Shown: positions 32,649-50,703 of the stretch, in pieces
Layout of the letters: each line of letters starts with the position of its first letter
How positions within the stretch are numbered: the first letter of the stretch is position 1
Assembly (NCBI RefSeq): GCF_000384315.1
Contig: NZ_ARVW01000001.1
Location: forward strand, 8,539,001 to 8,603,000
DNA: 64,000 nt
From: Amycolatopsis nigrescens CSC17Ta-90
GTDB taxonomy: Bacteria; Actinomycetota; Actinomycetes; Mycobacteriales; Pseudonocardiaceae
Direction of reading: 5' to 3'
Notes under the pieces: model-generated
The model's input: only the letters and a program-made list of their open reading frames with translations
The model's database searches: none
What the model was told of the DNA's origin: nothing
Position numbers and translations under genes: made by a program

Positions 32649-34064
32649 GTGACCGAGCAGCAGCGCAAGCCCAATCGTCAGCTCGCCGCGCTTATGCGCG
32701 AGGCTGGAGTCAGCAACAAGGGACTGTCCAGACGGATGTTCGACTGGAGCCGCCGCGACCAGGGCGACCCGATCTCGCCCTCGCACACGAGCATCGCCAA
32801 GTACCTCAGCGGGCAGATTGCTCGGCCAACGGCAAGAGCTTGCCAGGTCATGGCTAAGGTGCTGGGCGCCCAGCTAGGCCGGCCTGTCGCCCTTCACGAG
32901 ATCGGCTACCCCGACGTAGCCCCCGAAGCCGTCGACACCACCCTGCAGTATCCAGAGACGATCACGGATAGCATCACAGCCCTGACCCAGCTCACGAAGT
33001 ACGAGTTGACCAGCACGGATGCCGCGGCGAAGCTGCTTGTCGTGCCAGAGGCGTGGGCGTCGCTGCTGGTCAAGTCGATGTACGGCAGCGACGAGGAAGT
33101 CGCCATCGTCCACGAGCCTGTTGAACTGTCACCGGTGCACATCCAGGAAGTTCACGACGCTACCGAGATGTTCTCGACCTTCGATCATCGCTACGGCGGC
33201 GGAAAGTCGAAACCTCTGATTGCACAGTACCTAGAACGCGAAGTTCTGCCTCTTATTCCGCGCGTATCGGCCAGTTCACCACTAGGGCGGAACTATTTTC
33301 AGGCCGTTGCATCGCTGACCCTTCGCGCGGGATGGACAGCGTACGATAGCGGCGAACATGCCCGTGCTCAACGTTTCCTGTATCAGGCATACCGACTTGC
33401 GCGAGCAGCCGGCGATCGGGCTTTTAGTGGCCACGTGCTCGGCTGCATGAGTCATCAAGCCAATTTTCTGGGTCATTTCGAGGACGCCGTACATCTCGCC
33501 CGCGCGGCAGTCCACCACGGAGAGACTGGCGGGGCGACGCCAACAACCATGGCGTTATTCTACGCAATGAAAGCGCGAGCCCTCGCTTCTCAGGGCAACG
33601 AGAAGGAGGCGACGAGAGCGCTCCTGGCCGCTGAATCGTGGCTCGGCGCCAGCAATCCCGCAGATGACCCGGACTGGGTCTGGTACTTCGATTCGGCTGA
33701 ATTGCATGCAGAGTTCGCTCATTGCTTCCGCGACCTAGGGAATGCGGGGCTGGCAAATCAACACGCGATGACCTCAATCGCCGAGTCGAAAGACGTTTTC
33801 GTTCGCAGCTTGTCCTTTTGCAATTCTGTGCTGGCTACGTCACACTTGCTCGCCAACGATATAGACCAAGCGGTGGAGGTTGCGTGCAGTGTTGTGGACA
33901 CGGCAGTAACCCTGAATTCGTACCGCGTAATCTCGTACCTGAACGAGTTTCGCGGTCGGCTCGCGCCTTACGACTCCGCCGCAACCCGAACCTTCGATGA
34001 CTACTTCTCCAGCAAGGGCTTACTAAAAAACCGACCAGCAGCGAGGGGCATCATCATCCCTTAG
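32649..34064 (+). CDS. HTH-TPR type transcriptional regulator
   Basis: 471 residues from GTG 32649 behind GGGAGGGG. The N-terminal DNA-binding part reads NRQLAALMREAGVSNKGLSR, then HTSIAKYLSGQIARPTARAC. The long C-terminal part is tetratricopeptide-like (AARAAGDRAFSGHVLGCMS-type helices). This large actinobacterial class is often paired with small metabolic or signalling enzymes. Here it converges on a phosphotransferase gene and overlaps it by 42 bp. The gene body is less GC-rich than its neighbours in the latter half. Confidence 0.8.
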   Translation: MTEQQRKPNRQLAALMREAGVSNKGLSRRMFDWSRRDQGDPISPSHTSIAKYLSGQIARPTARACQVMAKVLGAQLGRPVALHEIGYPDVAPEAVDTTLQYPETITDSITALTQLTKYELTSTDAAAKLLVVPEAWASLLVKSMYGSDEEVAIVHEPVELSPVHIQEVHDATEMFSTFDHRYGGGKSKPLIAQYLEREVLPLIPRVSASSPLGRNYFQAVASLTLRAGWTAYDSGEHARAQRFLYQAYRLARAAGDRAFSGHVLGCMSHQANFLGHFEDAVHLARAAVHHGETGGATPTTMALFYAMKARALASQGNEKEATRALLAAESWLGASNPADDPDWVWYFDSAELHAEFAHCFRDLGNAGLANQHAMTSIAESKDVFVRSLSFCNSVLATSHLLANDIDQAVEVACSVVDTAVTLNSYRVISYLNEFRGRLAPYDSAATRTFDDYFSSKGLLKNRPAARGIIIP

Positions 34065-34922
34065 GTCACGGATTCGGCGGGTCACTTCCTTGTCAACTTT
34101 AGCCGACTGGCCGACCATCTGAGCCAACCATGTAGTCATATTCAATTCGCGTATCGCTTTAATTACTCGAAATCCCGACCATTCCAGGGCATCGAAACCA
34201 CACGCCCGTACGTAGCTGTAGTAGTCACTACGGGAAATCCAGCCAAACACACTGTAACCGATAGCTTCCACACAGAGATCCCACTCTCGGGGTCCTATGC
34301 AAAAGTCCTCGAAGTCAATCAGTTTCACCTTGCCGGTTTCACGGGAGCGAATAAGGTTATCCCTGTGAGCGTCGCCATGAATTGGACCACACCTCAGCGA
34401 AAACTCCAGCGTTTTGAATTGGGCGGCTAGTTCAACACTACGTTCATGTAGAAACGTTCGATCTCCATCGCACAGCGATGGGCCAATCTTGTCCAGGCGC
34501 CGCGCAACCTTCGGCATCGGGTCGAAAGATGGTAAGGTAAAATGCTTCGGCCACGGCAATCCGTGCAAGCGGCGAAGCATTGTTCCCAGGTCTCCGGAGG
34601 TAGGCCGGGAATCACCACTTGTGATGAACTCCCAAAAGGTCACAGCCATACCGTTCACTTCGTGAGGCTGCTGCTCCACGTCGGCTAACGCAACCGCGGG
34701 GTAGTTGTGGGCCGATAGCCAGCGCGCCACCTCAGCCTCTTTGTGGCTCGCCTCAGCCGATCGGCCGACTCTGACCATGACCGGCGCGGTCGCGAGCTTG
34801 AACAGCGCGTTCTCCCCCATCCGGATCAACTCAGCCCCGGTGGGATCGAGTTGCACGGCACGGCAGGCGGCCTCAGCGGCTTTTGTCGTGGTCTCAGGCG
34901 TGAACTTGGCCGCAGATGCCAT
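34023..34922 (-). CDS. Phosphotransferase (APH) family protein
   Basis: 299 residues from ATG 34922. The kinase-like fold shows the catalytic loop CGPIHGDAHRDNLIRS and metal loop VKLIDFEDFCIGPREWDL; the N-terminal phosphate-binding lobe is short. The family phosphorylates aminoglycosides, choline and other small alcohols. No feature here points to antibiotic resistance, and paired HTH-TPR regulators suggest signalling or metabolic use. Codon use is less GC-rich, suggesting recent transfer. Confidence 0.8.
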   Translation of the reverse strand: MASAAKFTPETTTKAAEAACRAVQLDPTGAELIRMGENALFKLATAPVMVRVGRSAEASHKEAEVARWLSAHNYPAVALADVEQQPHEVNGMAVTFWEFITSGDSRPTSGDLGTMLRRLHGLPWPKHFTLPSFDPMPKVARRLDKIGPSLCDGDRTFLHERSVELAAQFKTLEFSLRCGPIHGDAHRDNLIRSRETGKVKLIDFEDFCIGPREWDLCVEAIGYSVFGWISRSDYYSYVRACGFDALEWSGFRVIKAIRELNMTTWLAQMVGQSAKVDKEVTRRIRDLRDDDAPRCWSVF

Positions 34923-35020: not shown

Positions 35021-35443
35021 TCAGCTAGGGGGAGCGTCGTCGCTGGTGAGGAGTTCGAGCCGTTCGTGGGTGGCGAAGGTGCCGTAGTGCTTCACGTTCA
35101 GCGTCGCCAGCGGCAGGCCGTAGGCGAGGCAGCTCGCGGCGATCCAGGAGTCGTTGCCGTCGCTGCGCTGCCCGCGGCGGTGCGCATGAGCGGAGATCAG
35201 CCCCCAGGTGTGGGCCACGTTCTCGTGGTAGGGCACCACGGCCGCGTTGTCGAGCCAGTCGTCCAGGCGTGCTCGCCGGGCTGGTCCCCAGCCGTAGATC
35301 TCGGCCCATTTGGTCAGCTCGCCCAGGGTGACGAAGGTAATCAGGAACTGCCGACCGGTCAGTTTCGTCCCGAGCGAGGGCGGCAGCTGGCGCTTGAGGA
35401 GTTTGGACACGACGTCGGTGTCCAGCACGATCGGCGACGGCAC
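35021..35443 (-). CDS. PIN-domain toxin (VapC-like)
   Basis: 140 residues. PIN-fold acidic residues are visible: PIVLDTDVVSKLLK, TFVTLGELTKWAEIYG, and GNDSWIAASCLAYGLPLATL. It would cut RNA (often tRNA or rRNA) when free of antitoxin. It sits 5 bp downstream of the putative antitoxin gene at the right end of the AICE, where addiction modules stabilise elements. Confidence 0.85.
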   Translation of the reverse strand: MPSPIVLDTDVVSKLLKRQLPPSLGTKLTGRQFLITFVTLGELTKWAEIYGWGPARRARLDDWLDNAAVVPYHENVAHTWGLISAHAHRRGQRSDGNDSWIAASCLAYGLPLATLNVKHYGTFATHERLELLTSDDAPPS

Positions 35444-36321: not shown

Positions 36322-36374
36322 TGATCAACCCTGTTGATCATTGGGTGCGGCCGTGGGTGCGAGTACACCCACGG
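36322..36374. promoter_or_regulatory. Two inverted repeats before the second integrase
   Basis: TGATCAA-CCCTG-TTGATCA (36322-36340) and CCGTGGGT-(8 bp)-ACCCACGG (36351-36374) are both perfect. The second ends 2 bp before the ATG of int and could occlude its start. They are candidate operator or recombinase sites. Confidence 0.5.
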
Positions 36375-36376
36375 CC

Positions 36377-37639
36377 ATGACTGCTGCGCGCGCAGAGAAT
36401 CGGCAGCGCGGCCGCATCGAGGAACGCGGCAACACGCTCCGTGTGGTCGTCTACGCCGGCCTGGACCCCGTCACCGGCAAACGCACCTACCTGCGCGAGA
36501 AGATCGACGGCACCGACAAGCCTGCACAGAGGCGCGCTCAGAAGACCCTGAACAAGCTGCTTACCCAGGTCGACCAGCAGCGCTCCCCCAGTTCGTCCGT
36601 CACGCTCTCCTATGCGCTCGACGAGTGGATGCGCGTCACCGAACTGGAAGACAGCACCCGCAAGACGTACCAGGGCTACATAGACCGCACCATCAAGCCC
36701 GCCCTCGGCGCCGAACCGGCGAAGAAGATCGACGCGCGAGTCCTGGAAAGCTTCTACACCGAACTCCGCCGCTGCCGAATCCGCTGCGACGACAAGCCCT
36801 TCATCGAGAAGCACAAATCGGTTGAGGCGGACCACGACTGCAAGGATTCGGACTGCAAGGCGCACAAATGCCGCCCCATGGCCGCTTCTACCGTTCGCCA
36901 GTTACACGCCATCCTGAGCGGCACGCTCGGCGCTGCCGAGCGCTGGGGCTGGATCGCCAGCAACCCCGCCCGAGTAGCCCGCCGACCGAAGCAGAAGCCT
37001 CCGGAGCCCGATCCCCCGTCCCCAGCCGAGGCCGCACGCCTGGTCGAGGAGGCTTTCCGGATGGACGACGACTGGGGCACTCTCGTCTGGCTCGCCATGA
37101 CAACCGGCGTTCGCCGCGGCGAACTCGTCGGCCTCCGCTTCTCTCGCCTCGACCTTGACGGCGAGATCATCGACCTCCGTCGCAACTGGGTCGGCGGCAA
37201 GGAGAAGGACACCAAGACCCACCAGAACCGCCGCATCGCACTCGACTCCGAAACCGTCGTCCTGCTCAAGGAGCAGCGCGCCCGCGTCCAGCAGCGAGTC
37301 AAAGACCTGGGCGTCAAGTTCTCAAACGACCTGTTCGTCTTCTCCGGCAGCAAGACCCCCGACCACTCCGAGCCCTACTCCCCCAACGCCGTCACCCAGC
37401 GATACAAGGACATGGCCACCCGCCTGAGCATCGACACCCACCTGCACGCCCTGCGGCACTACAGCGCCACCGAGCTGCTCTCCGCCGGAATCGACCTCCG
37501 CACCGTCGCCGGCCGCCTCGGCCACGGCGGAGGCGGCGCTACCACCCTCCGCGTCTACGCCGCCTGGGTAGCCGCCACCGACCGCAAAGCCGCCGAGATC
37601 CTCGGGTCGCGGATGCCGAAACGAAACCACCACCTGTAA
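36377..37639 (+). CDS. Second tyrosine recombinase (integrase)
   Basis: 420 residues from ATG 36377. An N-terminal arm-binding part (RGRIEERGNTLRVVVYAGLD), a core-binding part with a Cys/His insert (DHDCKDSDCKAHKCRPM), and a catalytic domain with arginine in TTGVRRGELVGLRF, box II LHALRHYSATELLSAG, and GHGGGGATTLRVYAAW with the nucleophile tyrosine. It is unlike the first integrase in sequence and direction, reading away from the att core. A TTG start at 36341 would run through the inverted repeats and is less likely. Confidence 0.93.
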   Translation: MTAARAENRQRGRIEERGNTLRVVVYAGLDPVTGKRTYLREKIDGTDKPAQRRAQKTLNKLLTQVDQQRSPSSSVTLSYALDEWMRVTELEDSTRKTYQGYIDRTIKPALGAEPAKKIDARVLESFYTELRRCRIRCDDKPFIEKHKSVEADHDCKDSDCKAHKCRPMAASTVRQLHAILSGTLGAAERWGWIASNPARVARRPKQKPPEPDPPSPAEAARLVEEAFRMDDDWGTLVWLAMTTGVRRGELVGLRFSRLDLDGEIIDLRRNWVGGKEKDTKTHQNRRIALDSETVVLLKEQRARVQQRVKDLGVKFSNDLFVFSGSKTPDHSEPYSPNAVTQRYKDMATRLSIDTHLHALRHYSATELLSAGIDLRTVAGRLGHGGGGATTLRVYAAWVAATDRKAAEILGSRMPKRNHHL

Positions 37640-37702: not shown

Positions 37703-39469
37703 TTGCCGTCTACTGGCACTCAGACCCTGATCAAGACTATATTCGAGCAATGGAAAATAGCAAACGTTCCCCTGAGCTCGCCAAACGACGCATGGGAGTT
37801 GTTTACCGCTTGGCTGCTGTTAAAAGATAACGACCTCACACTCAACGAGATAGAGCTAGGCGTTGTTGACGGCGAGAATGATGGCGGAGCTGACGCAATT
37901 TATACATTGCTCGAAGGTTCAATTATCGAAGCAGACTCCGCAATAATCGAAAACGCCGACACGGCTCGCGAGTACCCCGAAGGATTAACTCTCGAACTCA
38001 AGGTAATTCAGTCCAAGAACAATACATCCTTTCCTCAAAGTGAAATAACAAAACTGCATTCACTGCTACCTCGCGCCCTGGACATAAGTCGAGATCTAGA
38101 CGAATTGCACGAAGAAGTGCGCGAGGAAGTCCGGGAGCAACTCCAAATATTTCGCACTGCACTGAAGAACCTCTTAGTCCGACGGCCACGAATATCAGTT
38201 CACATTTCGATTGCCTCACAAGGAGTAACACGCCACATAGACTCAAACGTTCACGGCAGAGCCGGCCGCCTGAAAGAAGACTTGCGTGAGCTTCTTCCAA
38301 TGGCCGACATCAAGGTTGAATTCATTGGGGCGGATGAACTCTGGAAAATTTATGACACACGATCCCCGGAGACGATCGAGCTACACTGTGACGAAATCCT
38401 GACCAGCGGCGAGTCCTACGTCGCATTGGCACCGCTAGACAACTACATCAGACTAATTTGCGAGAAAGATTATTCCATACGTCGCCATTTGTTCGACGCC
38501 AATGTTCGCGATTACGAGGGGCAAGTCGCCGTAAACAAGGAGATCATGGCCACCTTAAATGATCCCATGAGTCCCGAATTCTGGTGGCTCAATAATGGTG
38601 TAACTATCCTATGCGACGGCGCACATAGCGTAGGAAAGCGATTCGCCCTCAACAATATTCAAATTGTAAATGGTCTTCAGACCTCTCATACCATTGCCCG
38701 ATGGTTCAAGCAAACGAGCGAATCGGTGGGCGCCGAGGAACCAACCGCAGAACTTGCCAAACGAAAGATCCTCGTCAGGATAATTGTGGCCGACGAGAAT
38801 TCGGTACGCGATAGCATAATTCGCGCAACAAACAGGCAAACTCCGGTACCCGAAGCATCACTTCGAGCAACCGACAAGATCCAAAGACAAATAGAAAAGT
38901 ACTTCGAATCCAAGGGACTCTTCTACGATCGCAGGAAAGGCTACTATAGAAATATCGGGAAAGACCCAGCGCGAATCGTAAGTATCTCTTACTTGGGACA
39001 GGCAATGTATGCCCTTGCATACGGAAGACCCGAAGTGGCACGAGGAAAGCCCAACTCGCTTCTTGCAGAGGATGCACGCTACAGACAGGCCTTTGATGCA
39101 ACTGCAGACCTTGAGATTTTCTACTGGACTGCATCCGTACTTCGCGCCGTGGACTCTCACCTTCGATCAGCCACTTCCCAAATGCGCTATCCTGAGCGCC
39201 GATACCTTTCTCCCGTGATTGCATATGCGACCGTTGTCAAGGCATTGAACTCCATACCGCAACACTGGACACAACTGTTGCCACTAACAAAAAGAGAAGC
39301 AGACTTCTCGGATTTCGAAATCGAATCAGCGGCAGCAATTGTCAAAGAAGGGCTTGACGAGTTCACCAAGATGCATTCCACCACTCCGGCTGAAGCTACC
39401 AAGAGGCAGCCTTTTACACTCTACCTCGCTGACAAGGTTCTTTTCGGCGTAGTTGCCGGTCGGACTTGA
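37703..39469 (+). CDS. AIPR abortive-infection protein
   Basis: 588 residues from TTG 37703 (GGAGG six bases upstream). It carries the AIPR core: LIKTIFEQWKIANVP at the start, LTLELKVIQSKNNTSF, ANVRDYEGQVAVNKEIMATL, MSPEFWWLNNGVTILCDGAH, IVNGLQTSHTIAR and IIRATNRQTPVPEASLRATD. Proteins with this domain block phage growth (named from lactococcal abortive infection). The gene is markedly AT-richer than everything around it, a sign of recent acquisition. It follows the second integrase by 63 bp, the usual cargo position. Confidence 0.88.
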   Translation: MPSTGTQTLIKTIFEQWKIANVPLSSPNDAWELFTAWLLLKDNDLTLNEIELGVVDGENDGGADAIYTLLEGSIIEADSAIIENADTAREYPEGLTLELKVIQSKNNTSFPQSEITKLHSLLPRALDISRDLDELHEEVREEVREQLQIFRTALKNLLVRRPRISVHISIASQGVTRHIDSNVHGRAGRLKEDLRELLPMADIKVEFIGADELWKIYDTRSPETIELHCDEILTSGESYVALAPLDNYIRLICEKDYSIRRHLFDANVRDYEGQVAVNKEIMATLNDPMSPEFWWLNNGVTILCDGAHSVGKRFALNNIQIVNGLQTSHTIARWFKQTSESVGAEEPTAELAKRKILVRIIVADENSVRDSIIRATNRQTPVPEASLRATDKIQRQIEKYFESKGLFYDRRKGYYRNIGKDPARIVSISYLGQAMYALAYGRPEVARGKPNSLLAEDARYRQAFDATADLEIFYWTASVLRAVDSHLRSATSQMRYPERRYLSPVIAYATVVKALNSIPQHWTQLLPLTKREADFSDFEIESAAAIVKEGLDEFTKMHSTTPAEATKRQPFTLYLADKVLFGVVAGRT

Positions 39470-40532
39470 TCTGGCCGGCGAGGCGGCGAGCCTGCCGGGC
39501 CTGAGCGAGAGCCTCATCGCGGTCGCCGGAAGCGGCGTGGGCGTAGGCGAGGTCGACGAGCATCCCGGTCTTGGCGCGGATGAAGTCCGCGGGCAGGCGC
39601 GGTAGGGCATGGCTGAGTTGGTCGATGGCGTCGGGTTCGCCGAGCTTGCTGAGCGCGTGGCCGCGCCAGCGGTCGAGGTGGGCGCCGCCGAGGAAGAGAA
39701 ACGGGAGTGCGGGATCTTCCGGGTCAGCGGGGAGGAGTCCGTCGGCGGAGTCGAACGCGCGGAGTGCCTCGCTGCGGTGACCGGCGGCGGCGAGTCCTTC
39801 GCCGTGGGCGGCGGCCAGCCAGGAACGCAGCAGCGGCGGCGCCGTGTGCTTGGCGATGGTGCGGGCCTCGGCGAGCTGCTCGACGGCCGGGCCGGTTTCG
39901 CCGAGGTCGACCAGGATGAACGCCTGCTGGGCGAGCGAGTGCGCGAACAGCAGCGGTGAGCCTGCTTCACGGGCGGCGGTCTTGGCGGTCTCGTGGTGCT
40001 CCCATGCCTGACGGATGGCGTTGCGGTCGAGTGCTTCCCAACCAGCGAGCGCGGACGCCTCGGTGAGGACGCCGGCGAGCGCCTCGCGCTGGCCGGCGAC
40101 GGTGCTGAAGCTGAGTAGCCCGCGAATCTGCTTGATGTTGCTGCGGAGCTGGTCCAGGACCACTACCCCGCCGAGGCGCCGGTCGACGTGCCGGGCGTCG
40201 TCGACCTGCCGCCGGAACACCTCGACCATCTCAGAGTCGACCGAGCGGGCCAGTGCCAGCCGTGAGAGCAGCTCTTCAGCTTCGTTGTTGTCGTCGTCAG
40301 GCGGGAACCCGAGTTCGTCGTTGGTCCGGCCGTAGATGTCGCGGAAGAGCCGCCGGTAGGGCTGGCTGACCTCCTCGTGCCCGTTCTCCCAGCGGGACAG
40401 CTTGGTCTTGAGGCTCACCGGCGACATGACGGCCAAGCCGAGCATGTCGGCCCGGCGGAGCAGCATCGTGATCACCGCGTCGGCCTTGTAGCCGAGCTGT
40501 TTGCGGACGCCTTGAAGCTTGGTCTCGGTCAT
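39414..40532 (-). CDS. HTH-TPR type transcriptional regulator
   Basis: 372 residues from ATG 40532. The N-terminal XRE-like HTH (VRKQLGYKADAVITMLLRRA; SLKTKLSRWENGHEEVSQPY) precedes a long TPR-like domain (ASALAGWEALDRNAIRQAWE; GEGLAAAGHRSEALRAFD). Its TPR part is paralogous to the protein at 46650-47825. The 3' end overlaps AIPR by 56 bp. Direct repeats CGCGGTTAA upstream near 40570-40605 could be its operator. Confidence 0.78.
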   Translation of the reverse strand: MTETKLQGVRKQLGYKADAVITMLLRRADMLGLAVMSPVSLKTKLSRWENGHEEVSQPYRRLFRDIYGRTNDELGFPPDDDNNEAEELLSRLALARSVDSEMVEVFRRQVDDARHVDRRLGGVVVLDQLRSNIKQIRGLLSFSTVAGQREALAGVLTEASALAGWEALDRNAIRQAWEHHETAKTAAREAGSPLLFAHSLAQQAFILVDLGETGPAVEQLAEARTIAKHTAPPLLRSWLAAAHGEGLAAAGHRSEALRAFDSADGLLPADPEDPALPFLFLGGAHLDRWRGHALSKLGEPDAIDQLSHALPRLPADFIRAKTGMLVDLAYAHAASGDRDEALAQARQARRLAGQIKSDRQLRRKEPCQRGRV

Positions 40533-41259: not shown

Positions 41260-41541
41260 ATGAGTACTTCTATGCCCAATGCCGGTTCGCCGGCCTTCTA
41301 CACAGTCAAAGAGGCGGCGCGGATAGTCCGCGTCGACCCGTCCACCCTCTACCGCGCCATCAGGGAAGGAGCCTTTCCCGCAGTCCGGGTCCGCACCCGC
41401 TACGTCGTACCCGCCGCCGCCTTGGACCGGCTGATCAGCGAGGCCGCCGAGTCGGGCGGCTGTGTCGATCCGGCGCGGATGGTCGCCGACTGGCGCACCG
41501 CCCGCGAGGTCGCTCGGGTGAGCGGAGGTGCGCCGTGGTGA
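41260..41541 (+). CDS. Excisionase-family HTH protein
   Basis: 93 residues from ATG 41260. The HTH_17/MerR-like fold is FYTVKEAARIVRVDPSTLYR, then AIREGAFPAVRVRTRYVVPA. It may serve as excisionase for the second integrase or as operon regulator. Its stop overlaps the start of the WhiB-like gene (TGGTGA). Confidence 0.78.
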   Translation: MSTSMPNAGSPAFYTVKEAARIVRVDPSTLYRAIREGAFPAVRVRTRYVVPAAALDRLISEAAESGGCVDPARMVADWRTAREVARVSGGAPW

Positions 41542-41884
41542 ATCACGAGGAGGCCGTGGTGAATCACGAGGAGATCGCGGCCCGGCTCGACCGGTTCGCG
41601 GACGTGCCCGACGACGTGCTGGCCGAGGTGGTCACCAGGGGCGGCTTGTGCTTCTGGGCGTTCGATCGGGCCGACATCCCGGAGCTGACCGGTGAGGACA
41701 CACGCCCGACCGCGAACTGGCCGCGCGGATGTGCGCCGGCTGCCCGGTCATCGATGAATGCCTGGAACTGGAGCTACGCACGACTGGCGCGAACACCGTC
41801 GGCGTGTGGGGCGCTCTGCCGGACGCCGACCGGCGCGAAGTGCACCGGGCGTGGTTGCGGCACCGGGGTGGTGAGCGGCCATGA
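41535..41884 (+). pseudogene. WhiB-like protein broken by a 2-bp slip
   Basis: The first frame gives an N-terminal region with the first cysteine in TRGGLCFWAFDRADIPELTG. The rest (RMCAGCPVIDECLELELRTT, then TVGVWGALPDADRREVHRAW) lies in another frame and ends at 41884. The switch is at ACACAC near 41698; removing one AC gives a continuous WhiB-like protein with the four cysteines and the G-V-W-G turn. The start region is a tandem duplication (GTGGTGAATCACGAGGAG twice), giving two possible starts each with its own ribosome site. WhiB proteins hold a 4Fe-4S cluster and control transcription. Confidence 0.75.
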
Positions 41885-42213: not shown

Positions 42214-43025
42214 CCGGCAGGAAAGGGGCGGCCGCTTTCGGGCGGCCGCCCGCCTCCGCCGACGCGCGGCACGTCCCGTTGAGCCGAGGGCAACGGCTGG
42301 CGCAGGATGCGGCCGAGGCCGCCGAGGTCCGCAGGTACGCGACTCACCCGGATGTGGTGGCGTTGCGGGTGGAGCGGGTCCGGACGCAAGTGGACCGGCT
42401 GTGCTGGACGGGCATCGTGCTCGGGCTGGCTTTCACCATGAGCAACGTCCAGTGGTTCGCGGCCGCGGGCTCGCCGGCCTGGTCGCTGCCGTGGCTGGCG
42501 GCCTGGTTGCTGGACCCCACGGTGTCGCTGGTGCTGCTGGCGATCCTGCGGGCCGAGCAGGTGACCGCTCGATACCAGGTCCGGACCGGCGGATGGGTGC
42601 GCGCGGCGAAGTGGCTCGCCCTGGCCGCCACGTACGTGATGAACACCTGGGCGTCCTACGCGGCCGGCTCGCTGTCCGGGATCGTGCTGCACTCGATACC
42701 GCCGCTGATCGTGTTCGCGGCCGCCGAGGCGATCACGGATCTCCGGGACAAGCTCACCGAAGCGGTCACCGTGGCGTTCACGGACGCAGCTCGGCGCGTG
42801 CCGAACACAGCCGGGCGCACTCGCCGGAAGCGCAGTGGCCGCAAGCTGTTCGGTGACTATCTCGCAGAGGCACGAGAGGCATGGACCCCGGGCGTGGTGA
42901 TCACACCGGCATGGGTTCGCAAGGTGACGACGTGTTCGCGCGGGTTGTCGCCCCGGCTGGCCGCCGCTCTCGCGGCCGAGGTCGCCGAGAGGAGGGATGG
43001 TCGTGAACAGTCCCGTGAACGGTGA
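42210..43025 (+). CDS. DUF2637-type (Spd-like) membrane protein
   Basis: 271 residues from ATG 42210. A charged N-terminus is followed by about four membrane helices (WTGIVLGLAFTMSNVQWFAA; SLPWLAAWLLDPTVSLVLL; WLALAATYVMNTWASYAAG; IVLHSIPPLIVFAAAEAIT). The order matches DUF2637 proteins that precede traB-like genes in actinomycete plasmids. The C-terminal cytoplasmic tail overlaps the TraB start by 23 bp. Confidence 0.8.
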   Translation: MTGRKGAAAFGRPPASADARHVPLSRGQRLAQDAAEAAEVRRYATHPDVVALRVERVRTQVDRLCWTGIVLGLAFTMSNVQWFAAAGSPAWSLPWLAAWLLDPTVSLVLLAILRAEQVTARYQVRTGGWVRAAKWLALAATYVMNTWASYAAGSLSGIVLHSIPPLIVFAAAEAITDLRDKLTEAVTVAFTDAARRVPNTAGRTRRKRSGRKLFGDYLAEAREAWTPGVVITPAWVRKVTTCSRGLSPRLAAALAAEVAERRDGREQSRER

Positions 43026-45120
43026 TGCGTCCGCAATGACCGGTTCACGTGAGGTCGAGAAGGCCGAGCCGATCCTCGATGGTGAACTCGTCGACGACAC
43101 GTTGCCGCAACCGCGTCCGCGGAGCTGGAGGCTACGGTTCGCGCGGTGGTGGCTGTACTCGCCACGTGTGCCGGTCTCGCTGAAGAGTCGTGCGCAGGCG
43201 TGGCAGCTCGTCAAGGATGCCGCGGTCGCGGTGCTGCGCTCTCCGTGGCGGTACCTCCGTGCGGTGGTGCGCGGGCTCGTGACGGCGGTGCGATGGTGGC
43301 GCGGTTGGGTGAAAGTGCGCGACTACCGCGAGGCGGCCGAGCAGTCGGAGAAGCTGGCGGACAAGTTCAGTGAGATTCGTGAGCTGACCTTGTTCCGCTG
43401 GCGCGTCACCGGTGCCGTCATCGGAGCTACCACCGTCGTGGGTGGACTGGCCGTGCTGGTCTACGGCTACCGTCCACTCTGGATCGCGGGGGGCGTGGTG
43501 TCGCTGGCGCTGGCCTTGCTCGGCAGGCGCAAGGACGGCAGCCCGGGCCGCAAGCCCGCACTGGCCGGGCCGCGCACACTCACCTGGACCATGGACCCGC
43601 AGATCTTGGTCGATGCCTTCCGGGACGCGAAGCTGATCGGCAAGGACGAGGCACTCCGGCTGGTCGAACGCGCGACTCGGGTCGGTGACGGGTGGGCGGT
43701 CACTGTCGATCTCCCGGCCACTCGCAAGGCGGCCGACGTGGTGAAGAACCGCGAGGCGCTCGCCTCAGCTCTGGCAGTCGACGAGCTTCAGTTGATCGTG
43801 GAGCGGGTGCGCGGCAACGGCGGTCACGCCGGCCGGGTGTCGATGTGGGTGGCCGACGAGGACCCGTACGCCTCACCACCGGTTCGGACACCTCTGCTCG
43901 GGGTGAGCCGGTGGGATGCGTGGCGGCCGGTGCCGTTCGGCCGTGACGCCCGCGACCGCCGGATCGACCTGCCGCTGGTGTGGACGTCGTTGCTCGTCGG
44001 TGCGATTCCGAGGCAGGGCAAGACTTTCGCCGCACGGTTGGCCGCCGCGGGTCTGATCCTGGACGCTCACGTTCGCCTGTACGTGGCGGACTTCAAGGCG
44101 GGTAAGGACTGGGACGCGGCCGAGCAGGTCGCCCACCGGTTCATGTCCGGCGACGAAACCGACCACGTGCTGACGCTCAAGGATTGGCTGGTCGAGCTGG
44201 TCGGCGAAGTGCAGGGCCGCTACCGGCGGATGCGGGACCTCGACGACCTGACCTGTCCGGAGTCGAAGGTCACGCCGGACATGTCGCGGGACCGGTCGCT
44301 GAACATGCCCATTACCGCGATCTTCGTCGACGAGGTACAGGTACCGCTCGAAGACCGCACACCCGTTGCTGTACAAGGAAAGAAGCTCACCGTGGGCGAG
44401 TACATCGGCGAGTTGCTCACCTGGTTGGCGAAGAAGGGACCGGCCGCCGGCATCGTGCTCGTTCTCGCCACCCAGCGGCCGGACTCGAAAACCATCCCCT
44501 CCGGCCTGCGCGCAGTCCTTGGCTCACGGTTCGCACTGCGAGTGATGGACTGGCGTGACAGCAACATCGTGCTCGGCGAGCAGATGAACACCCGCGGTTT
44601 CGACTCCAGCCGCCTGCTGCCTTCGCACAAGGGCGTCGGCATCCTGCGGCCGGACGGCGAGACCCATGACGCGCTGGCCACGACGGTTCGCACGTACTAC
44701 ATGCCCAATGAGGACTGGCAGACCATCTGCCAGCAAGGGCGGGCGCTCCGGGAGGCCGAGGGCACGTTGACCGGACATGCGGCCGGGCAGGACACGGCTC
44801 CGGTACTTGACCATGCCGCCGTGGCGAAGGCGATCGGCACCGGCCCGGCCGAGGTCACCGAGGCGGTCGAACTGCCGGAACCGCTGGCGTCCGTTGTGGA
44901 GTACCTCGGCGACGACGGCCGCGAGTTCGTGCCCACGGCCGAACTGGTCGAAGCACTCGATGTTGAGCCGACCGCGTTCGGGCGGCAGATGGGTGCGCTC
45001 GGCTGCCGGTCCGAGCGCGGCAGGCTCACCGCCGAGGACGGCACCACTCGGCAAGTCCGCGGCTATCTCGTCGCCGACATCCGCGCGGCGGTGCGCGAAG
45101 TGGCTGAAGGGAGATCCTGA
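43003..45120 (+). CDS. Second TraB/FtsK-like DNA translocase
   Basis: 705 residues from GTG 43003, preferred over ATG 42997 because GAGGAGGG then sits at the right distance. Two N-terminal membrane helices (VTGAVIGATTVVGGLAVLVY; WIAGGVVSLALALLG) are followed by Walker A VGAIPRQGKTFAAR (about residues 331-345) and Walker B ITAIFVDEVQVPL (about 437). It ends in a winged-helix-like part (LVEALDVEPTAFGRQMGALG). It is distant from the first TraB and should recognise a different DNA site. Immediately followed by the repeat cluster. Confidence 0.88.
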   Translation: MNSPVNGDASAMTGSREVEKAEPILDGELVDDTLPQPRPRSWRLRFARWWLYSPRVPVSLKSRAQAWQLVKDAAVAVLRSPWRYLRAVVRGLVTAVRWWRGWVKVRDYREAAEQSEKLADKFSEIRELTLFRWRVTGAVIGATTVVGGLAVLVYGYRPLWIAGGVVSLALALLGRRKDGSPGRKPALAGPRTLTWTMDPQILVDAFRDAKLIGKDEALRLVERATRVGDGWAVTVDLPATRKAADVVKNREALASALAVDELQLIVERVRGNGGHAGRVSMWVADEDPYASPPVRTPLLGVSRWDAWRPVPFGRDARDRRIDLPLVWTSLLVGAIPRQGKTFAARLAAAGLILDAHVRLYVADFKAGKDWDAAEQVAHRFMSGDETDHVLTLKDWLVELVGEVQGRYRRMRDLDDLTCPESKVTPDMSRDRSLNMPITAIFVDEVQVPLEDRTPVAVQGKKLTVGEYIGELLTWLAKKGPAAGIVLVLATQRPDSKTIPSGLRAVLGSRFALRVMDWRDSNIVLGEQMNTRGFDSSRLLPSHKGVGILRPDGETHDALATTVRTYYMPNEDWQTICQQGRALREAEGTLTGHAAGQDTAPVLDHAAVAKAIGTGPAEVTEAVELPEPLASVVEYLGDDGREFVPTAELVEALDVEPTAFGRQMGALGCRSERGRLTAEDGTTRQVRGYLVADIRAAVREVAEGRS

Positions 45121-45566: not shown

Positions 45567-45745
45567 GTGTCCCGCTCCATCTCCCCAGCACGCTCAATCA
45601 GCCGTTGCCCGAGCTCTTGGAGCTGCTCGCCGAGGCTCCGGAGCCTGGTGGCCTGCTGCTCGTGCGGGTAGAGGAAGTCCGTCTCCAGGTGCGCGAGCCG
45701 GACCTTGGTGAGCCAGACCTCCTGCAGCAACTCGGCGTCACTCAT
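45563..45745 (-). CDS. Small coiled-coil protein
   Basis: 60 residues from ATG 45745. Helical, leucine-rich (ELLQEVWLTKVRLAHLETDF; LRSLGEQLQELGQRLIERAG). It overlaps genes on both sides. No family recognised; it may partner the XRE protein. Confidence 0.6.
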   Translation of the reverse strand: MSDAELLQEVWLTKVRLAHLETDFLYPHEQQATRLRSLGEQLQELGQRLIERAGEMERDT

Positions 45746-46079
45746 CGCGCGATCCCGACTGCCGCGACAACAGAGCTTTGAGAGCCCTGGTCAGCTCCTC
45801 CATCGCGGCAACCAGCTCCTCAACGGTCACCAGCGGCACCGTCGCAGCCGATTCGATCGCCAGCGGTTCCGGTGCTGGCACGTTACGCAGGCAGGGCTCG
45901 CACGGCATCCCCGCGATCGATCCGAGGGTCTCCAGCTCGTTGATATCGAACTCGGCGCCGCAGGTCGCCCTCAGATGCTCGGCCACCGGCCCAGGTCCGA
46001 CTGGGAACAGGTGCGCCACCCTGCGAGCCTCGCCAACCGTGCCGCGCAGTGGCCGCGCGATGATCAACCGGGCGCTCAC
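45738..46079 (-). CDS. Hypothetical Cys-motif protein
   Basis: 113 residues from GTG 46079 (GGAGAAG upstream). It reads MSARLIIARPLRGTVGEARR, then VAHLFPVGPGPVAEHLRATC, GMPCEPCLRNVP with a C-x-x-C pair, and a helical tail (VEELVAAMEELTRALKALLS). Such proteins occur in regulator clusters of Pseudonocardiaceae mobile elements, but no function is known. The same frame stays open upstream to 46502, so a longer fused reading cannot be excluded. Confidence 0.5.
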   Translation of the reverse strand: MSARLIIARPLRGTVGEARRVAHLFPVGPGPVAEHLRATCGAEFDINELETLGSIAGMPCEPCLRNVPAPEPLAIESAATVPLVTVEELVAAMEELTRALKALLSRQSGSRDE

Positions 46080-46502
46080 CGGACTTCTCCGGTCGAGATG
46101 GCCCCGGCGGGCGCAAGTGGGCCGCCTGCGCCCGCCGGGGTTGATATCCGCTCGCGCCGTCCGGCCGCCGAGGAAGGCAACGACGGCGACTGCGCGATCG
46201 GAGTCCGAGCACACCGGAACAGCCGCCCGGCGCCTCCTGCGATGACTCGTCGGACGGGCGATGCTTCGCAGGTCGGCCAGGTGCGCACAGCAGTACGGGC
46301 ACCGGCCGCCCGGAGCCAGCAACGCCGGCCCGATCAGCACCACATGCCCGCACACCGACGCGTACCGGCCCTGCTTCTCATGCACCCCGCGGGCGAAGTT
46401 CTCATCGGTCACCGCGTGGTCGAGCCCGTCGACCACGCACCGGTACCACGCCACGTACGGCCCACCGGCCGCGAACCCCCGCCTCGACACGCCCACGATC
46501 AC
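46080..46502 (-). CDS. Hypothetical Cys-rich protein, frame uncertain
   Basis: From ATG 46502: MIVGVSRRGFAAGGPYVAWY, then DGLDHAVTDENFARGVHEKQ, VCGHVVLIGPALLAPGG and RCPYCCAHLADL (possible zinc knuckle). Beyond about 46290 a second frame ends at 46076 with a GTGA overlap onto the next gene, which is the usual junction. That suggests the real protein changes frame near the CPYCC segment, or that it is fused to the downstream module. Function unknown. Confidence 0.35.
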
Positions 46503-46649
46503 CCTTCTGCATGCAATACCGACCTGACCAGCCCTGACGAGCTGTGAAACACTGAAATTAGCTTTACATTCGGCATGATTTCAGCGACAGGCCGCGCGTG
46601 GGCCACGACTGGCCATGTAGAGGACATGGCGAACGGGGAGGACAAGGAC

Positions 46650-47825
46650 ATGACCACCGACGACACCGGCGCCCGCCCGGCGCGCACCGTGCTCGAACAG
46701 CGAATCTGGGACCGACGCGAGAGCCTCGAACGCTTCGCCGAGTTCGCCAACACCTACGCCCGCCAGCACGGCGAACCCGGCACCCTCAGCTACCGCCACC
46801 TCCGACGCCTCGTCGCCGGCCGCGGCGAAGGCGGCAAACCCCTCGGCCGCCCTCAGGCAGCGACCGCCCGCCTACTCGAACACATCTTCAGCACGTCCAT
46901 CGACGAGTTGCTCTCACCGCCGCCCGGGGTAGAGATCGACACGAGTAGCGACGACAAGCTCCGCGCGATGCTCCGTTCGTCAGCACGCGTTGATCAGTCA
47001 GTACTTGCACTACTACAAGACCAACTCACCGCGATCCGCCGTCTCGACCGCCAACTCGGCGCCGTCGTCACGCACGACGAAGTACTTACCAAGGCCACCC
47101 AAGTCAGCCGACTTATGACCCACAGCCTCGCGCCAGCTATCCGCGAGCAGCTAGCTGGCTTACTTTCCGAACTCTGCGCTCTCGCTGGCTGGCAAGCCCT
47201 TGATATGAGTGACATAACGACGTCATGGCAGCACTACGATCGCGGCCGCTTAATTGCTAGGGACGCTGGGAATCCAGCATTCGAATCCTACACGGCTGCA
47301 GGACAGGCCTTTGTCCTGCTCGACCTCCACGAAGCATCGTCTGCCGTCGAACTGCTCGCCGCAACTCGCCAACAAGCGAACGGCAAAGTCAATAGTTTTC
47401 TGCAGGCATGGCTTGCAGCCGCAGAAGGGGAAGCACTTGCAGCAAACAAACAGGGCTTACCCAGTTTAGATGCCTTCGACCATGCGTCGACCGTATTGCT
47501 CGATAAAGAATACCATACGGATGGCCCATACGTTGCCCTCGATTTCACTCATCTCGCAAGGTGGCGCGGGCACGCAATGGCAAGACTTGGACACCCAGAC
47601 GCAGTGAATGCCCTAACTTCGACCCTAAGTCAACTCGACACCACATTTATGCGCGCACGTACTGCACTCCAGATTGATCTAGCAATGGCACTCGGAGGAT
47701 CCGGCGAGTTCGCCATGTCGAAACTCTATATTGAACACGCAAAAGAGCTAGCGATCTCCATAGGATCAAAGCGCCAACGGAATCTAATTGGCCCACTTAT
47801 CAAGTATATTAAAACATCAAAGTAG
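46650..47825 (+). CDS. TPR-containing regulator upstream of SRA-KAP
   Basis: 391 residues from ATG 46650 (GGGGAGG eight bases upstream). The N-terminal part (VLEQRIWDRRESLERFAEFA; GTLSYRHLRRLVAGRGEGG) is a putative HTH. The rest is TPR-like (LSELCALAGWQALDMSDITT; AAGQAFVLLDLHEASSAVEL; ARTALQIDLAMALGGSGEFA). It parallels the protein at 39414-40532 segment by segment, so the two are paralogues. The C-terminal third is AT-rich. It ends 88 bp before the SRA-KAP gene. Confidence 0.72.
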   Translation: MTTDDTGARPARTVLEQRIWDRRESLERFAEFANTYARQHGEPGTLSYRHLRRLVAGRGEGGKPLGRPQAATARLLEHIFSTSIDELLSPPPGVEIDTSSDDKLRAMLRSSARVDQSVLALLQDQLTAIRRLDRQLGAVVTHDEVLTKATQVSRLMTHSLAPAIREQLAGLLSELCALAGWQALDMSDITTSWQHYDRGRLIARDAGNPAFESYTAAGQAFVLLDLHEASSAVELLAATRQQANGKVNSFLQAWLAAAEGEALAANKQGLPSLDAFDHASTVLLDKEYHTDGPYVALDFTHLARWRGHAMARLGHPDAVNALTSTLSQLDTTFMRARTALQIDLAMALGGSGEFAMSKLYIEHAKELAISIGSKRQRNLIGPLIKYIKTSK

Positions 47826-47899: not shown

Positions 47900-47905
47900 T
47901 ATACT
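47900..47905 (+). promoter_or_regulatory. Possible -10 box for a leaderless SRA-KAP message
   Basis: TATACT stands eight bases before GTG 47914, so transcription would start at or next to the start codon. No good ribosome site precedes the GTG. Leaderless messages are common in actinobacteria. A -35 is weak (TTCCCA at 47876). Confidence 0.4.
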
Positions 47906-47913
47906 CCAACACC

Positions 47914-49974
47914 GTGGCGGAAGAGCGGTTTTACGGCGAGATACCGGGCTACCCTGAAGGCAGCCATTTCCCAGACCGCCCTGCCCTCCAACGCTCACGG
48001 GTGCACCGCCCCGGCCAAGCCGGCATCTCAGGCGGGCAGGACGGGGCGGACTCCATCGTGGTCTCCGGCGGTTATGTCGACGACGAGGACAACGGCGACG
48101 AGATCATCTACACCGGTCAGGGAGGTCGAGACCCCGGCACGGGGCGCCAAATAGCGGATCAGGAATTGACCCGTGGGAACCTTGGCCTCGTTCGCAGCCG
48201 GCAAGACGGACGTCCCGTCCGAGTTGTTCGCGGGTCGAACGGCGACCCCAAATACTCGCCCGAGAGCGGCTACCGGTACGACGGCCTGTTCCGCGTAATC
48301 GATCATTGGCAGGAGGATGGCAAGGACGGGTTCACAGTTTGGCGGTTCCGGCTCGCCAAGACCGAGGACGAGGCATCGATCCCGACAGGCAGCGGTAGCG
48401 CGACGGCTTCCGTCCCTGCTCAACAAACTTCTGACAACGAAGACGCTGACGGTGAAGATTCTGAGTTCGTCGGGCTACCAGCCGAGCAGGAGCATTGGGC
48501 GAGCGACGCGCCGGCGGATAAGGACCTACTCAAGCGCGACGCCCTCGCATCGGTGATCGCAGCCAGGTTGCTCCGCTTCTCACACAACGAGCCTAACCTG
48601 TCCTTCTTGCTTCACGTGGACGGACCTTGGGGGTCGGGCAAAAGCACGTTGCTCCGATTTCTCGGCCATCATCTCAAGGATCACTACCTCGTCGTACCGT
48701 TCGATTCCTGGAAACATGCCAAGGTAGACCCGCCGTGGTGGGCGCTGCTCGTCACGTTGCGGCAGCACGTGTCACGAGCTTTGCCGTGGTGGAGCCGAGT
48801 CGGCCTGCGGATCGCGGATAGTTGGACGCGGGCGCGCCGGGGCAGCACGCCGTACCTGCTCACCGGGCTTGTACTGCTGGTAGCAGTACTCGGCCTGGTC
48901 CTCATCAATCCTGGTTGGGTGGGGCAGCTCAAGAACCTCACCACTGTGTTGAGCCTTTTCGGTTCTATAGCACTCGTAGTTCTGCTGATCAGCCGCTTCG
49001 TGTGGTGGGATTCCGCACGAGGCGCGCGGCGACTGGAGCAAGTGCACACCAACCCGATGCAAGAAGTCACGCAACACTTCAGCTGGCTGTTGGCGCGTGC
49101 ACCACGCCGGGTGGTCTTCTTCCTCGACGATTTGGACCGCTGCGGAGAGAAGTACGTCGTCGATCTTCTCGATGCGGTGCAGACCCTGGTCCGCGACGCT
49201 CCAGAACGGAAGGGCAAGACAGACAAGTCGGCGTATTTCATCGTCGCCGCGCACGGGAACTGGCTGCGACGAGCTTATGAGACCGTTCACCAGTCCTTTC
49301 AAGGCGCAGTCGATGAACCTGGGCGCAAGCTCGGTCATCTGTTCCTCGACAAGCTCTTCCAATTGACCATCCCGATGCCCACTCTCGGTACGGACACGAA
49401 GCAGCTTTACTTCGACCGCGTGCTCGGCATTCAAGGGTCTGATCAGGCGCTCGACGAGGAAGACAACGAACTTCTGGAACAGATCGAACGCAGTACCAGC
49501 GAGCGGGAGATCCTCGAAGCGCTTCAGGCCGCCACCGCGCAGCAACGGGAGAGGTCGGTTTCCCGGGCCGTCGAGAAGATGAGCGAGCCAACCATCGCTG
49601 AAGTCACTGAGCACGCCCTGCAGAAGTTCGCGCCGCTGCTCGATGGAAACCCGCGGAGCATGAAGCGGTTCGTCAACACCTACAGCGTCGTGCGCGCGGC
49701 GAGAACGTTGGAAGGGATCACCGTTGAAAGCGACGTGCTGGCCTTCTGGACCGTCCTCAGCATCCGCTGGCCGATCCTAACCGAGTACTTGGCCGCTAAC
49801 CTCAGTTCCCTGGTGGAGGGCACTTCGAAGGAGGTCAGGCTCGACTCGATGCCCGACTACTACGCGCCCCTCCTGGCTGACGTCGAACTGCGCCGCGTAC
49901 TGGCCAACGCTCCCGTGCGCTTCACACCTGACCTGATCCAGGCTTGTTGCGGCGCGCTCACCTATGGCAACTGA
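47914..49974 (+). CDS. SRA(YDG)-KAP NTPase fusion, putative defence protein
   Basis: 686 residues from GTG 47914. Residues about 6-148 form an SRA/YDG domain: FYGEIPGYPEGSHFPDRPAL, HRPGQAGISGG, SIVVSGGYVDDEDNGDEIIY, TGQGGRDPGTGRQIADQELT, RGNLGLVRS, PVRVVRG and GYRYDGLFRV. SRA domains flip and read 5-methyl- or hydroxymethylcytosine. After an acidic linker comes a KAP P-loop NTPase with Walker A GPWGSGKST (237-245), a two-helix membrane hairpin (about 313-332 and 343-361) inserted before Walker B VVFFLDDLDRC (about 400), and a helical C-terminus. KAP NTPases such as PifA mediate membrane-linked phage exclusion. The fusion predicts a modified-DNA sensor driving a membrane effector. No nuclease domain is visible. 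Confidence 0.88.
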   Translation: MAEERFYGEIPGYPEGSHFPDRPALQRSRVHRPGQAGISGGQDGADSIVVSGGYVDDEDNGDEIIYTGQGGRDPGTGRQIADQELTRGNLGLVRSRQDGRPVRVVRGSNGDPKYSPESGYRYDGLFRVIDHWQEDGKDGFTVWRFRLAKTEDEASIPTGSGSATASVPAQQTSDNEDADGEDSEFVGLPAEQEHWASDAPADKDLLKRDALASVIAARLLRFSHNEPNLSFLLHVDGPWGSGKSTLLRFLGHHLKDHYLVVPFDSWKHAKVDPPWWALLVTLRQHVSRALPWWSRVGLRIADSWTRARRGSTPYLLTGLVLLVAVLGLVLINPGWVGQLKNLTTVLSLFGSIALVVLLISRFVWWDSARGARRLEQVHTNPMQEVTQHFSWLLARAPRRVVFFLDDLDRCGEKYVVDLLDAVQTLVRDAPERKGKTDKSAYFIVAAHGNWLRRAYETVHQSFQGAVDEPGRKLGHLFLDKLFQLTIPMPTLGTDTKQLYFDRVLGIQGSDQALDEEDNELLEQIERSTSEREILEALQAATAQQRERSVSRAVEKMSEPTIAEVTEHALQKFAPLLDGNPRSMKRFVNTYSVVRAARTLEGITVESDVLAFWTVLSIRWPILTEYLAANLSSLVEGTSKEVRLDSMPDYYAPLLADVELRRVLANAPVRFTPDLIQACCGALTYGN

Positions 49975-49988
49975 TCGCGCCTGATTCT

Positions 49989-50447
49989 TCAACTCGATCG
50001 GGATCGACGCTCACGCCACAGCCGCGCGATCCCGTCCGCCGCAGTTTCGAAGTCCTCGTGCTCCCACACCCGCACGACGAGCCAGCCCGCGGCTGCCAGT
50101 TCGGCGTCGGTATCGCGATCGCGCCGCACAACTCCCTCCAGCTTGCGGCGCCACCACTCCCGATTGTTCTTCGGCGGATGAGCGTGCGCCGGGCACGAGT
50201 GCCAGAAGCAGCCGTCGACGAACACAGCTATGCCCGCTGCCGTGAGGAGAATGTCAGCGCGACGGCGTCTGTTCGTTCCGGGAGGGGAGGCGTCGACTAG
50301 GAACCTCAGCCCCCTGCGGTGCAGCGCTCTCCGCAACCTCAACTCCGGCTGCGTGTCCCGACGTCCGGTCCTGCGCATCACCCTCGCTGTCGCAGGAGAT
50401 GTCGCCTTCGGCGTCGGTCCCGGATCGATGTACTGGTAGGCACTCAT
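49989..50447 (-). CDS. vsr: Very-short-patch-repair (Vsr) type endonuclease
   Basis: 152 residues from ATG 50447. Vsr motifs are clear: MRRTGRRDTQPELRLRRALH, then LRFLVDASPPGTNRRRRADI with the metal aspartate, VFVDGCFWHSCPAHAHPPKN, NREWWRRKLEGVVRRDRDTD and WLVVRVWEHED. Vsr nicks next to the T of T:G mismatches produced by deamination of 5-methylcytosine. No cytosine methyltransferase is near, so it is not part of an ordinary restriction-modification set here. Convergent with SRA-KAP, stops 14 bp apart. Confidence 0.92.
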   Translation of the reverse strand: MSAYQYIDPGPTPKATSPATARVMRRTGRRDTQPELRLRRALHRRGLRFLVDASPPGTNRRRRADILLTAAGIAVFVDGCFWHSCPAHAHPPKNNREWWRRKLEGVVRRDRDTDAELAAAGWLVVRVWEHEDFETAADGIARLWRERRSRSS

Positions 50448-50703
50448 GCTCCCCCTCGAACGTCGCATCAGCTAAGGAGACCGCTACCTGAAGCCTTCAG
50501 CCGCTGATCACGAATAACAGAGCACCACGACAAGTACGATCATGATCTTCTCGAGGTATGGTGCATCCCGCATCGTGCGCGATGACGCGGCCAACTGGGA
50601 ACCAGGACTTCGACTTGCTCGGCCGGGAGCGGCCCGCGAACACGCCGTCCGCACGCGAGTCGCAGGTCGGCGAACCGCGGGCAGCGTCACCACCCGACAC
50701 GGC

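What the first reader, a model, noticed from the sequence alone, without database searches (positions are those of the whole stretch)
47914..49974. SRA(YDG) domain fused to a membrane KAP P-loop NTPase
Seen: one open frame joins a well-kept SRA domain (YDG, SGGYVDDED and TGQGG blocks) through an acidic linker to a KAP NTPase with Walker A, membrane hairpin and Walker B. Known: SRA domains read 5mC or hmC in DNA and in bacteria are usually fused to HNH or other nucleases; KAP NTPases such as PifA cause membrane-linked phage exclusion. Inference: a type IV-like defence system that senses modified phage DNA and triggers a membrane or abortive effector rather than cutting. I do not know of a described system with this architecture.
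Basis: partly seen in the sequence, partly recalled or inferred. Interest (0 to 1): 0.92.

Follow-up and report, generated by a model that had tools for sequence, protein, structure and literature searches.

The report
Methyl-DNA reader fused to membrane ATPase
A bacterium of the actinomycete group carries a single gene that joins a domain built to read methylated DNA to a membrane-type ATPase of a kind found in phage defence, which suggests that bacteria may sense a foreign DNA mark and respond at the membrane instead of cutting the DNA.

The parts
47914..49974 (+). SRA-KAP fusion gene, 686 aa, GTG start
   Evidence: Pfam; homologue L004
47932..48369 (+). SRA (SAD_SRA) domain, residues 7-152
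48016..48018 (+). Gln35, equivalent of TagI thumb residue Gln35
   Evidence: alignment; role in TagI from PMC6212794 passages
48073..48111 (+). stretch holding the flipped-base pocket residues Tyr54, Asp57, Tyr66 = TagI Tyr55, Asp58, Tyr67
   Evidence: alignment; roles from PMC6212794 passages
48373..48513 (+). disordered, partly acidic linker, residues 154-200
   Evidence: pLDDT under 50
48496..49971 (+). KAP NTPase module, residues 195-686
   Evidence: Pfam; conserved across relatives
48622..48645 (+). Walker A GPWGSGKS, residues 237-244
48850..48906 (+). predicted transmembrane helix 1, residues 313-331
   Evidence: hydropathy 2.58; helix 314-331 in model
48946..49002 (+). predicted transmembrane helix 2, residues 345-363
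   Evidence: hydropathy 2.36; helix 342-365 in model
49114..49143 (+). Walker B VFFLDDLDRC, residues 401-410
47900..47905 (+). possible -10 box TATACT 8 bp before the GTG (leaderless transcript?)
   Evidence: TAAGCT at the same distance in L004; consensus match only, weak
36341..37639 (+). context: tyrosine recombinase/integrase
   Evidence: Pfam Phage_integrase E 7.9e-18
37703..39469 (+). context: AbiU/AIPR abortive-infection gene
   Evidence: PADLOC AbiU E 3.5e-166; Pfam AIPR E 8.4e-37
42997..45120 (+). context: FtsK/SpoIIIE-like ATPase, probable transfer gene of a mobile element
   Evidence: Pfam FtsK_SpoIIIE E 8.9e-5, just under its cut-off
49989..50468 (-). context: Vsr-like endonuclease gene, convergent neighbour; no relative beside L004, L005, L063 or L064
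   Evidence: Pfam Vsr E 1.3e-12; tblastn

Best explanation
A one-gene, modification-triggered conflict (defence) protein. The SRA head flips out and holds 5-methyl- or 5-hydroxymethyl-cytosine in incoming DNA, a mark that this host itself probably does not make. The KAP NTPase sits on the inner face of the membrane through its two-helix hairpin; DNA-bound heads gather or switch the NTPases, possibly into rings, and the assembled KAP acts at the membrane (leak or depolarisation leading to abortive infection or exclusion) rather than cutting DNA. Shown here: the domains, pocket residues, Walker motifs, hydrophobic hairpin, no recognised nuclease domain, no PF00145 methyltransferase match in the host, and coupling of two forms of SRA head to one KAP clade. 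Inferred: DNA binding, oligomerisation, membrane action, protection from phage.
Against: No experiment. The output is inferred from KAP relatives only. The second SRA-KAP genome (G648, Actinosynnema) has one PF00145 match, so that 5mC is foreign there is not shown; the avoidance statistic rests mainly on other SRA proteins, and the window's host carries an SRA-HNH as well (L002). No scanned neighbour of the Actinosynnema and G775 genes is a clear defence gene. In several relatives the head position holds an effector-type domain (trypsin, caspase) and not a sensor, so the head could in principle be the output. In Tmn, deletion of nmad5 did not abolish sensitivity. PMC8594841 itself raises the possibility that PifA did not evolve as immunity.
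Confidence: 0.5

Rival explanations
1. Exclusion without cell death: the SRA-KAP holds modified incoming DNA at the membrane, or loads on it as an ATP-driven ring, and blocks its entry, replication or transcription; the cell survives.
Against: PifA, a KAP relative, is suggested to cause membrane depolarisation (passage). No loader partner or DNA path was identified.
Confidence: 0.22
2. The KAP is only a switch that recruits an effector encoded elsewhere, for instance a nuclease, so the system cuts DNA in trans.
For: A Vsr-like endonuclease gene ends 14 bp from the fusion's stop codon, convergent; related NTPases work in multi-gene systems (PMC8195603 passage; qat recalled).
Against: No relative of the Vsr gene or of five other window neighbours lies beside L004, L005, L063 or L064 (tblastn E 1e-3).
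Confidence: 0.12
3. Not defence: a tether or regulator of the mobile element itself (for example anchoring element DNA at the membrane during transfer), or epigenetic housekeeping.
For: It lies near an integrase and an FtsK-like gene; the G775 gene has an HTH_17 (excisionase-type) gene about 5 kb away.
Against: The Actinosynnema gene lies between molybdenum-hydroxylase, amidohydrolase, thermolysin and ABC-transporter genes; the host has no PF00145 match to write the mark; the related SRA heads that were scanned sit on nucleases.
Confidence: 0.1
4. The SRA head is a relic that now serves only oligomerisation or protein binding.
For: Heads in this chassis include protein-interaction or signalling domains such as WD40 and NB-ARC.
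Against: Pocket Tyr-Asp-Tyr and thumb Gln are kept, and sister proteins carry a different but still SRA-fold head.
Confidence: 0.06

Closest known systems
SRA-HNH modification-dependent endonucleases (TagI, ScoA3IV, Tbis1)
   Same: N-terminal SRA domain with the same pocket residues; 54% identity to TagI in the structure match.
   Different: No HNH or other nuclease family among the Pfam matches; a membrane-type KAP NTPase follows instead.
ScoMcrA (SBD-SRA-HNH)
   Same: Its SRA fold is the best match of the head on the sister KAP proteins.
   Different: The sister KAP proteins have a KAP tail; the window's own SRA is of TagI type.
KAP NTPases in defence: PifA, QatA, Tmn, PADLOC candidate PDC-S20
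   Same: KAP NTPase; PADLOC models of QatA, PDC-S20 and PifA hit; Tmn is described as a KAP with two transmembrane domains.
   Different: No passage that I saw reports an SRA head on any of them; the PADLOC matches lie in the NTPase part.
RADAR RdrA
   Different: 15% identity; SRA head and hydrophobic hairpin here. A RdrB-like partner was not searched for.
STAND/KAP conflict systems (Kaur et al. 2021, PMC8195603)
   Same: KAP may replace the STAND NTPase in such systems (passage); trypsin, caspase, NB-ARC, WD40 and a weak TIR match seen here on the same KAP module.
   Different: SRA has 0 occurrences in that paper's main text.
SauUSI and McrBC (NTP-dependent type IV systems)
   Same: Modified-cytosine reader plus NTPase.
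   Different: SauUSI has a PLD nuclease and helicase-type ATPase (passage); McrBC has a nuclease subunit (recalled).

Membership tests
SAD/SRA domain family | Profile match over the curated cut-off and SRA fold | tested here: met
SAD/SRA domain family | Base-flipping pocket Tyr/Asp/Tyr | tested here: met
   Tyr54, Asp57, Tyr66 aligned to TagI Tyr55, Asp58, Tyr67
SAD/SRA domain family | Binds 5mC or 5hmC DNA | not testable with these tools
   needs a binding assay
SRA-HNH type IV restriction endonuclease | Nuclease domain fused to SRA | tested here: not met
   no nuclease family among 17 Pfam matches at E up to 1
KAP NTPase family | KAP profile over cut-off; Walker A and B | tested here: met
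   97.8 vs 20 bits; motifs
KAP NTPase family | Transmembrane insertion between Walker A and B | tested here: met
   two hydropathy peaks at 313-331 and 345-363; prediction only
Qat system (QatA) | qatB, qatC, qatD beside qatA (recalled) | tested here: not met
   neighbours scanned with Pfam and in part with PADLOC gave no qat partner
PifA | Full-length PifA similarity | tested here: inconclusive
   PADLOC PifA E 1e-9 over residues 205-417 only
Tmn | Match to a Tmn model | tested here: inconclusive
   no Tmn row among PADLOC matches at E up to 1; whether that library has a Tmn model was not checked
STAND/KAP conflict systems | Same NTPase module with varied heads | tested here: met
   36-protein tree, 11 head labels; 27 of 36 labels rest on a scan of that protein
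STAND/KAP conflict systems | Effector-associated domain pairs in neighbouring genes | not tested
   no search for these domains beyond the Pfam scans

The most novel reading that the evidence does not exclude
The first kind of bacterial immune receptor in which an epigenetic mark on invading DNA triggers a membrane-acting NTPase and no DNA cutting at all: an NLR-like, single-gene receptor made by plugging SRA-type readers of restriction enzymes, in two forms, into a general actinobacterial KAP chassis that elsewhere carries protease, WD40, TIR-like and NB-ARC heads.
Probability: 0.38. Interest if true: 0.87.

Novelty: new variant of a known kind. Interest (0 to 1): 0.68.

Why it matters
The SRA-type modification-dependent enzymes described in the passages that I read end in DNA cleavage. 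A methyl-DNA reader wired to a membrane NTPase would separate recognition of foreign modified DNA from cutting, would show how a phage that repairs or survives cuts could still be stopped, and would show that restriction-enzyme readers and NLR-like receptors exchange parts. It is directly testable with one gene, one purified domain and classical hmC phages.

Tried and rejected
Chance or artefact of the fusion: rejected by the 77%-identical full-length homologue. Conserved partner gene: six window neighbours (Vsr-like, upstream regulator, AbiU, integrase, FtsK-like, ORF 45738-46502) have no tblastn match at 1e-3 in L004, L005, L063 or L064 (an earlier comparison with L004, L005, L008 gave outside the fusion only weak matches of two far-off ORFs, at 5591-7214, in L004). 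Ten neighbours of the Actinosynnema and G775 genes by Pfam (plus one) and ten by PADLOC: no clear defence gene; PADLOC's hits there are generic ATPase and HTH likenesses (an ABC transporter matching mad3, an HTH_17 protein matching mad1). Mobile-element ends: direct repeats in 31000-59000 gave no convincing att pair, and sister-genome contigs matched only a RibD-like gene on the right and, in one, a stretch at 3.7-5.6 kb, so the borders stay unknown. Phylum-wide census of the KAP module with an alignment found only the own genome among 396 (three candidates scored per genome, a lower bound). Viral contigs: none. Phage records: none. Plasmids: 47 records, none covering 80% of the query. Type-2 head: no PDB match from one sequence, no Pfam match at 0.01 for L039, BLASTP against the window SRA E 0.11; only the profile and the fold showed SRA. 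First rpoB tree had about half the rows on the wrong strand and was discarded; one search replaces it. The AVAST type 5 paper PMC12931631: KAP as a whole word has 0 occurrences in its main text. A search for SRA with Shedu or DUF4263 gave 0 papers. The KAP part was not folded or searched alone.

Labels on the KAP tree: 27 of 36 rows had a Pfam scan of that protein's head (two of these, L015 and L053, gave nothing, and L039 got its SRA label). Nine (L009, L019, L020, L023, L036, L042, L043, L045, L054) were named by likeness to a scanned relative. Weak labels: L051 caspase E 0.0063; L014 and L041 AAA_16 under cut-off; the TIR_2 match of L010 is under its cut-off (20.3 vs 28 bits). Loci that are second copies of a protein already in the tree (L008, L037, L038, L040, L049) were left out; matches without a locus were not examined. 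The nuclease-like tail of the type-2 head relatives was read by eye; Pfam named no nuclease there.

Full report

THE POCKET. In passages of the TagI paper (PMC6212794) the flipped base is held by Tyr55, Asp58 and Tyr67, Gln35 should fill the gap, and TagI cleaves DNA with 5mC or 5hmC but not with glucosyl-5hmC. The alignment puts Tyr54, Asp57, Tyr66 and Gln35 of the window's protein at these places. Specificity itself was not tested.

HOW COMMON. The genome-contig scan gave 10 loci; one, Actinosynnema sp. ALI-1.44 (L004), is a full-length SRA-KAP at 77% identity (the same genome is G648, equal contig length). In 390 genomes of the same family, 42 had a match at E 1e-60 or better; in four of these (G763, G764, G767, G772) the match is SRA only, which leaves 38 with the KAP module (three candidates scored per genome, so a lower bound). 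Of these 38, two show a canonical SRA head (own genome and G648) and two (G775; G778, whose protein equals that of the Saccharopolyspora endophytica locus L005) a divergent head. Among the 59 other genomes of the genus searched no second SRA-KAP was found.

A CHASSIS WITH DIFFERENT HEADS. Pfam scans of relatives name the heads: Trypsin_2 (L006, L007, L011), NB-ARC (L008, L017, L046, L056), WD40 with a weak, sub-threshold TIR_2 (L010), caspase C14 (L018, L047, L057; weakly L051), VMAP-M0 (L016), WD40 (L044, L048, L050, L052, L055), AAA-type (L014, L021, L022, L041; L014 and L041 under cut-off), and nothing for L015 and L053. On a tree of 36 KAP modules the 11 head labels need 11 changes (least possible 10; shuffled mean 25.6), so heads are kept within clades and differ between them; the four SRA-type proteins form one clade with support 100/99.

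SELF AND NON-SELF. The own genome (one contig, 99.87% complete) has no PF00145 match; the same search rings in 10 of 14 control genomes. Among 60 genomes of the genus 12 have an SRA domain like the window's at E 1e-20; 9 of the 12 lack PF00145 at E 0.001. The three that have it are G021, G045 and, with one weak match (E 4.3e-4), G036. Of the 48 without SRA, 1 (G015) lacks it (Fisher p 1.4e-7). The two traits change 11 and 10 times on a tree of an rpoB fragment, and in 8 independent pairs that differ in SRA, methyltransferase goes the opposite way in 5.8, the same way in 0 and does not differ in 2.2 on average (median p 0.031, range 0.0156-0.125). KAP modules without SRA do not show this: 9 of their 10 carrier genomes in the genus have PF00145. 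This supports that SRA domains of this kind treat C5-methylated DNA as foreign. Limits: more divergent SRA domains were not counted; 11 of the 12 carriers have the SRA on other proteins, and the own genome has an SRA-HNH as well (L002); of the four genomes with SRA-headed KAP, three lack PF00145 and G648 has one match, a short methyltransferase-like stretch about 2.5-3 kb from a probable integrase (both read by eye).

CONTEXT. In the window the gene lies downstream of an integrase (36341-37639), an AbiU/AIPR gene (37703-39469; PADLOC E 3.5e-166), an HTH_17 gene (41260-41541) and an FtsK-like gene (42997-45120), so probably in or beside an integrative element; its borders were not found. In Actinosynnema (L064) the neighbours are molybdenum-hydroxylase subunits, an amidohydrolase, a thermolysin-like protease and an ABC transporter; beside the G775 gene (L063) they are a carboxymuconolactone-decarboxylase-type protein, an HTH/DUF5753 protein, an HTH_17 and a TetR protein. 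None of six window neighbours has a relative there. A TANNNT box lies 8 bp before the GTG in both the window (TATACT) and L004 (TAAGCT), with no clear ribosome-binding site by eye, which would suit a leaderless mRNA of its own (weak, consensus only). Together this points to a self-sufficient single gene.

MECHANISM. Best reading: the SRA senses 5mC/5hmC in incoming DNA and the KAP responds at the membrane. Precedents, seen as passages: PifA and RexAB were suggested to sense phage proteins and kill by membrane depolarisation, though the same paper raises the possibility that PifA did not evolve as immunity (PMC8594841); Tmn, a KAP with two unusual transmembrane domains, is escaped by mutation of the phage DNA-modification gene nmad5 (PMC11846954), which fits the idea that KAP systems can answer to modified DNA, although deletion of nmad5 did not abolish sensitivity. 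[quoted passage not shown] a ring is therefore plausible here but not shown.

LITERATURE. Searches that paired SRA with KAP returned no paper with the fusion: 0 papers; 4 listed; 4; 6; on KAP in defence showed none either in title or start of abstract. Of the listed papers I opened as passages those on prokaryotic systems (PMC12707154; PMC10853773, where SRA and KAP occur in different systems); PMC7461809 and the CoCoNuTs papers were seen in the listing only, and the eukaryotic papers were not opened. Kaur et al. 2021 (PMC8195603, passages) says a KAP ATPase may replace the STAND NTPase in conflict systems; SRA has 0 occurrences there. Many subscription papers and all bioRxiv preprints not deposited in PMC are outside the library.

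VERDICT. Real, conserved in at least one further genus, not chance. The chassis kind is known in outline; I found no description of the SRA-headed form without a nuclease. Sensor role likely, membrane output plausible, defence role likely but untested.

Noticed in passing
L062:3611-4822 (-), genome G093: An SRA head 69% identical to the window's is fused to a Shedu (SduA_C, DUF4263) nuclease domain, near MmeI-like methyltransferase and HNH_2 genes; a second unusual SRA fusion.
   Followed up: partly
window 49989-50468 (-): A Vsr-like mismatch endonuclease in a genome without any PF00145 C5-methyltransferase match; its usual partner (recalled) is missing.
   Followed up: no
L078-L093: A group of proteins with the ScoMcrA-type SRA head and a conserved nuclease-like tail that Pfam does not name; possible unnamed modification-dependent endonucleases.
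   Followed up: partly
window 39414-40532 (-) and 46575-47825 (+): Two paralogous regulator-like proteins (38% identity over 303 aa, E 3.7e-55) flank the transfer-type genes; the second ends 88 bp before the SRA-KAP start.
   Followed up: partly
genus-wide, G000-G059: SRA domains and C5-methyltransferases avoid each other across the genus.
   Followed up: yes
G000:C1:8238961-8240538: A second, different KAP NTPase (875-aa frame) in the own genome.
   Followed up: no
window 34023-34922 (-): APH-family phosphotransferase gene beside a PIN-domain gene at 35021-35443.
   Followed up: no
window 41532-41573: Perfect 21-nt tandem duplication across the end of the HTH_17 gene.
   Followed up: no
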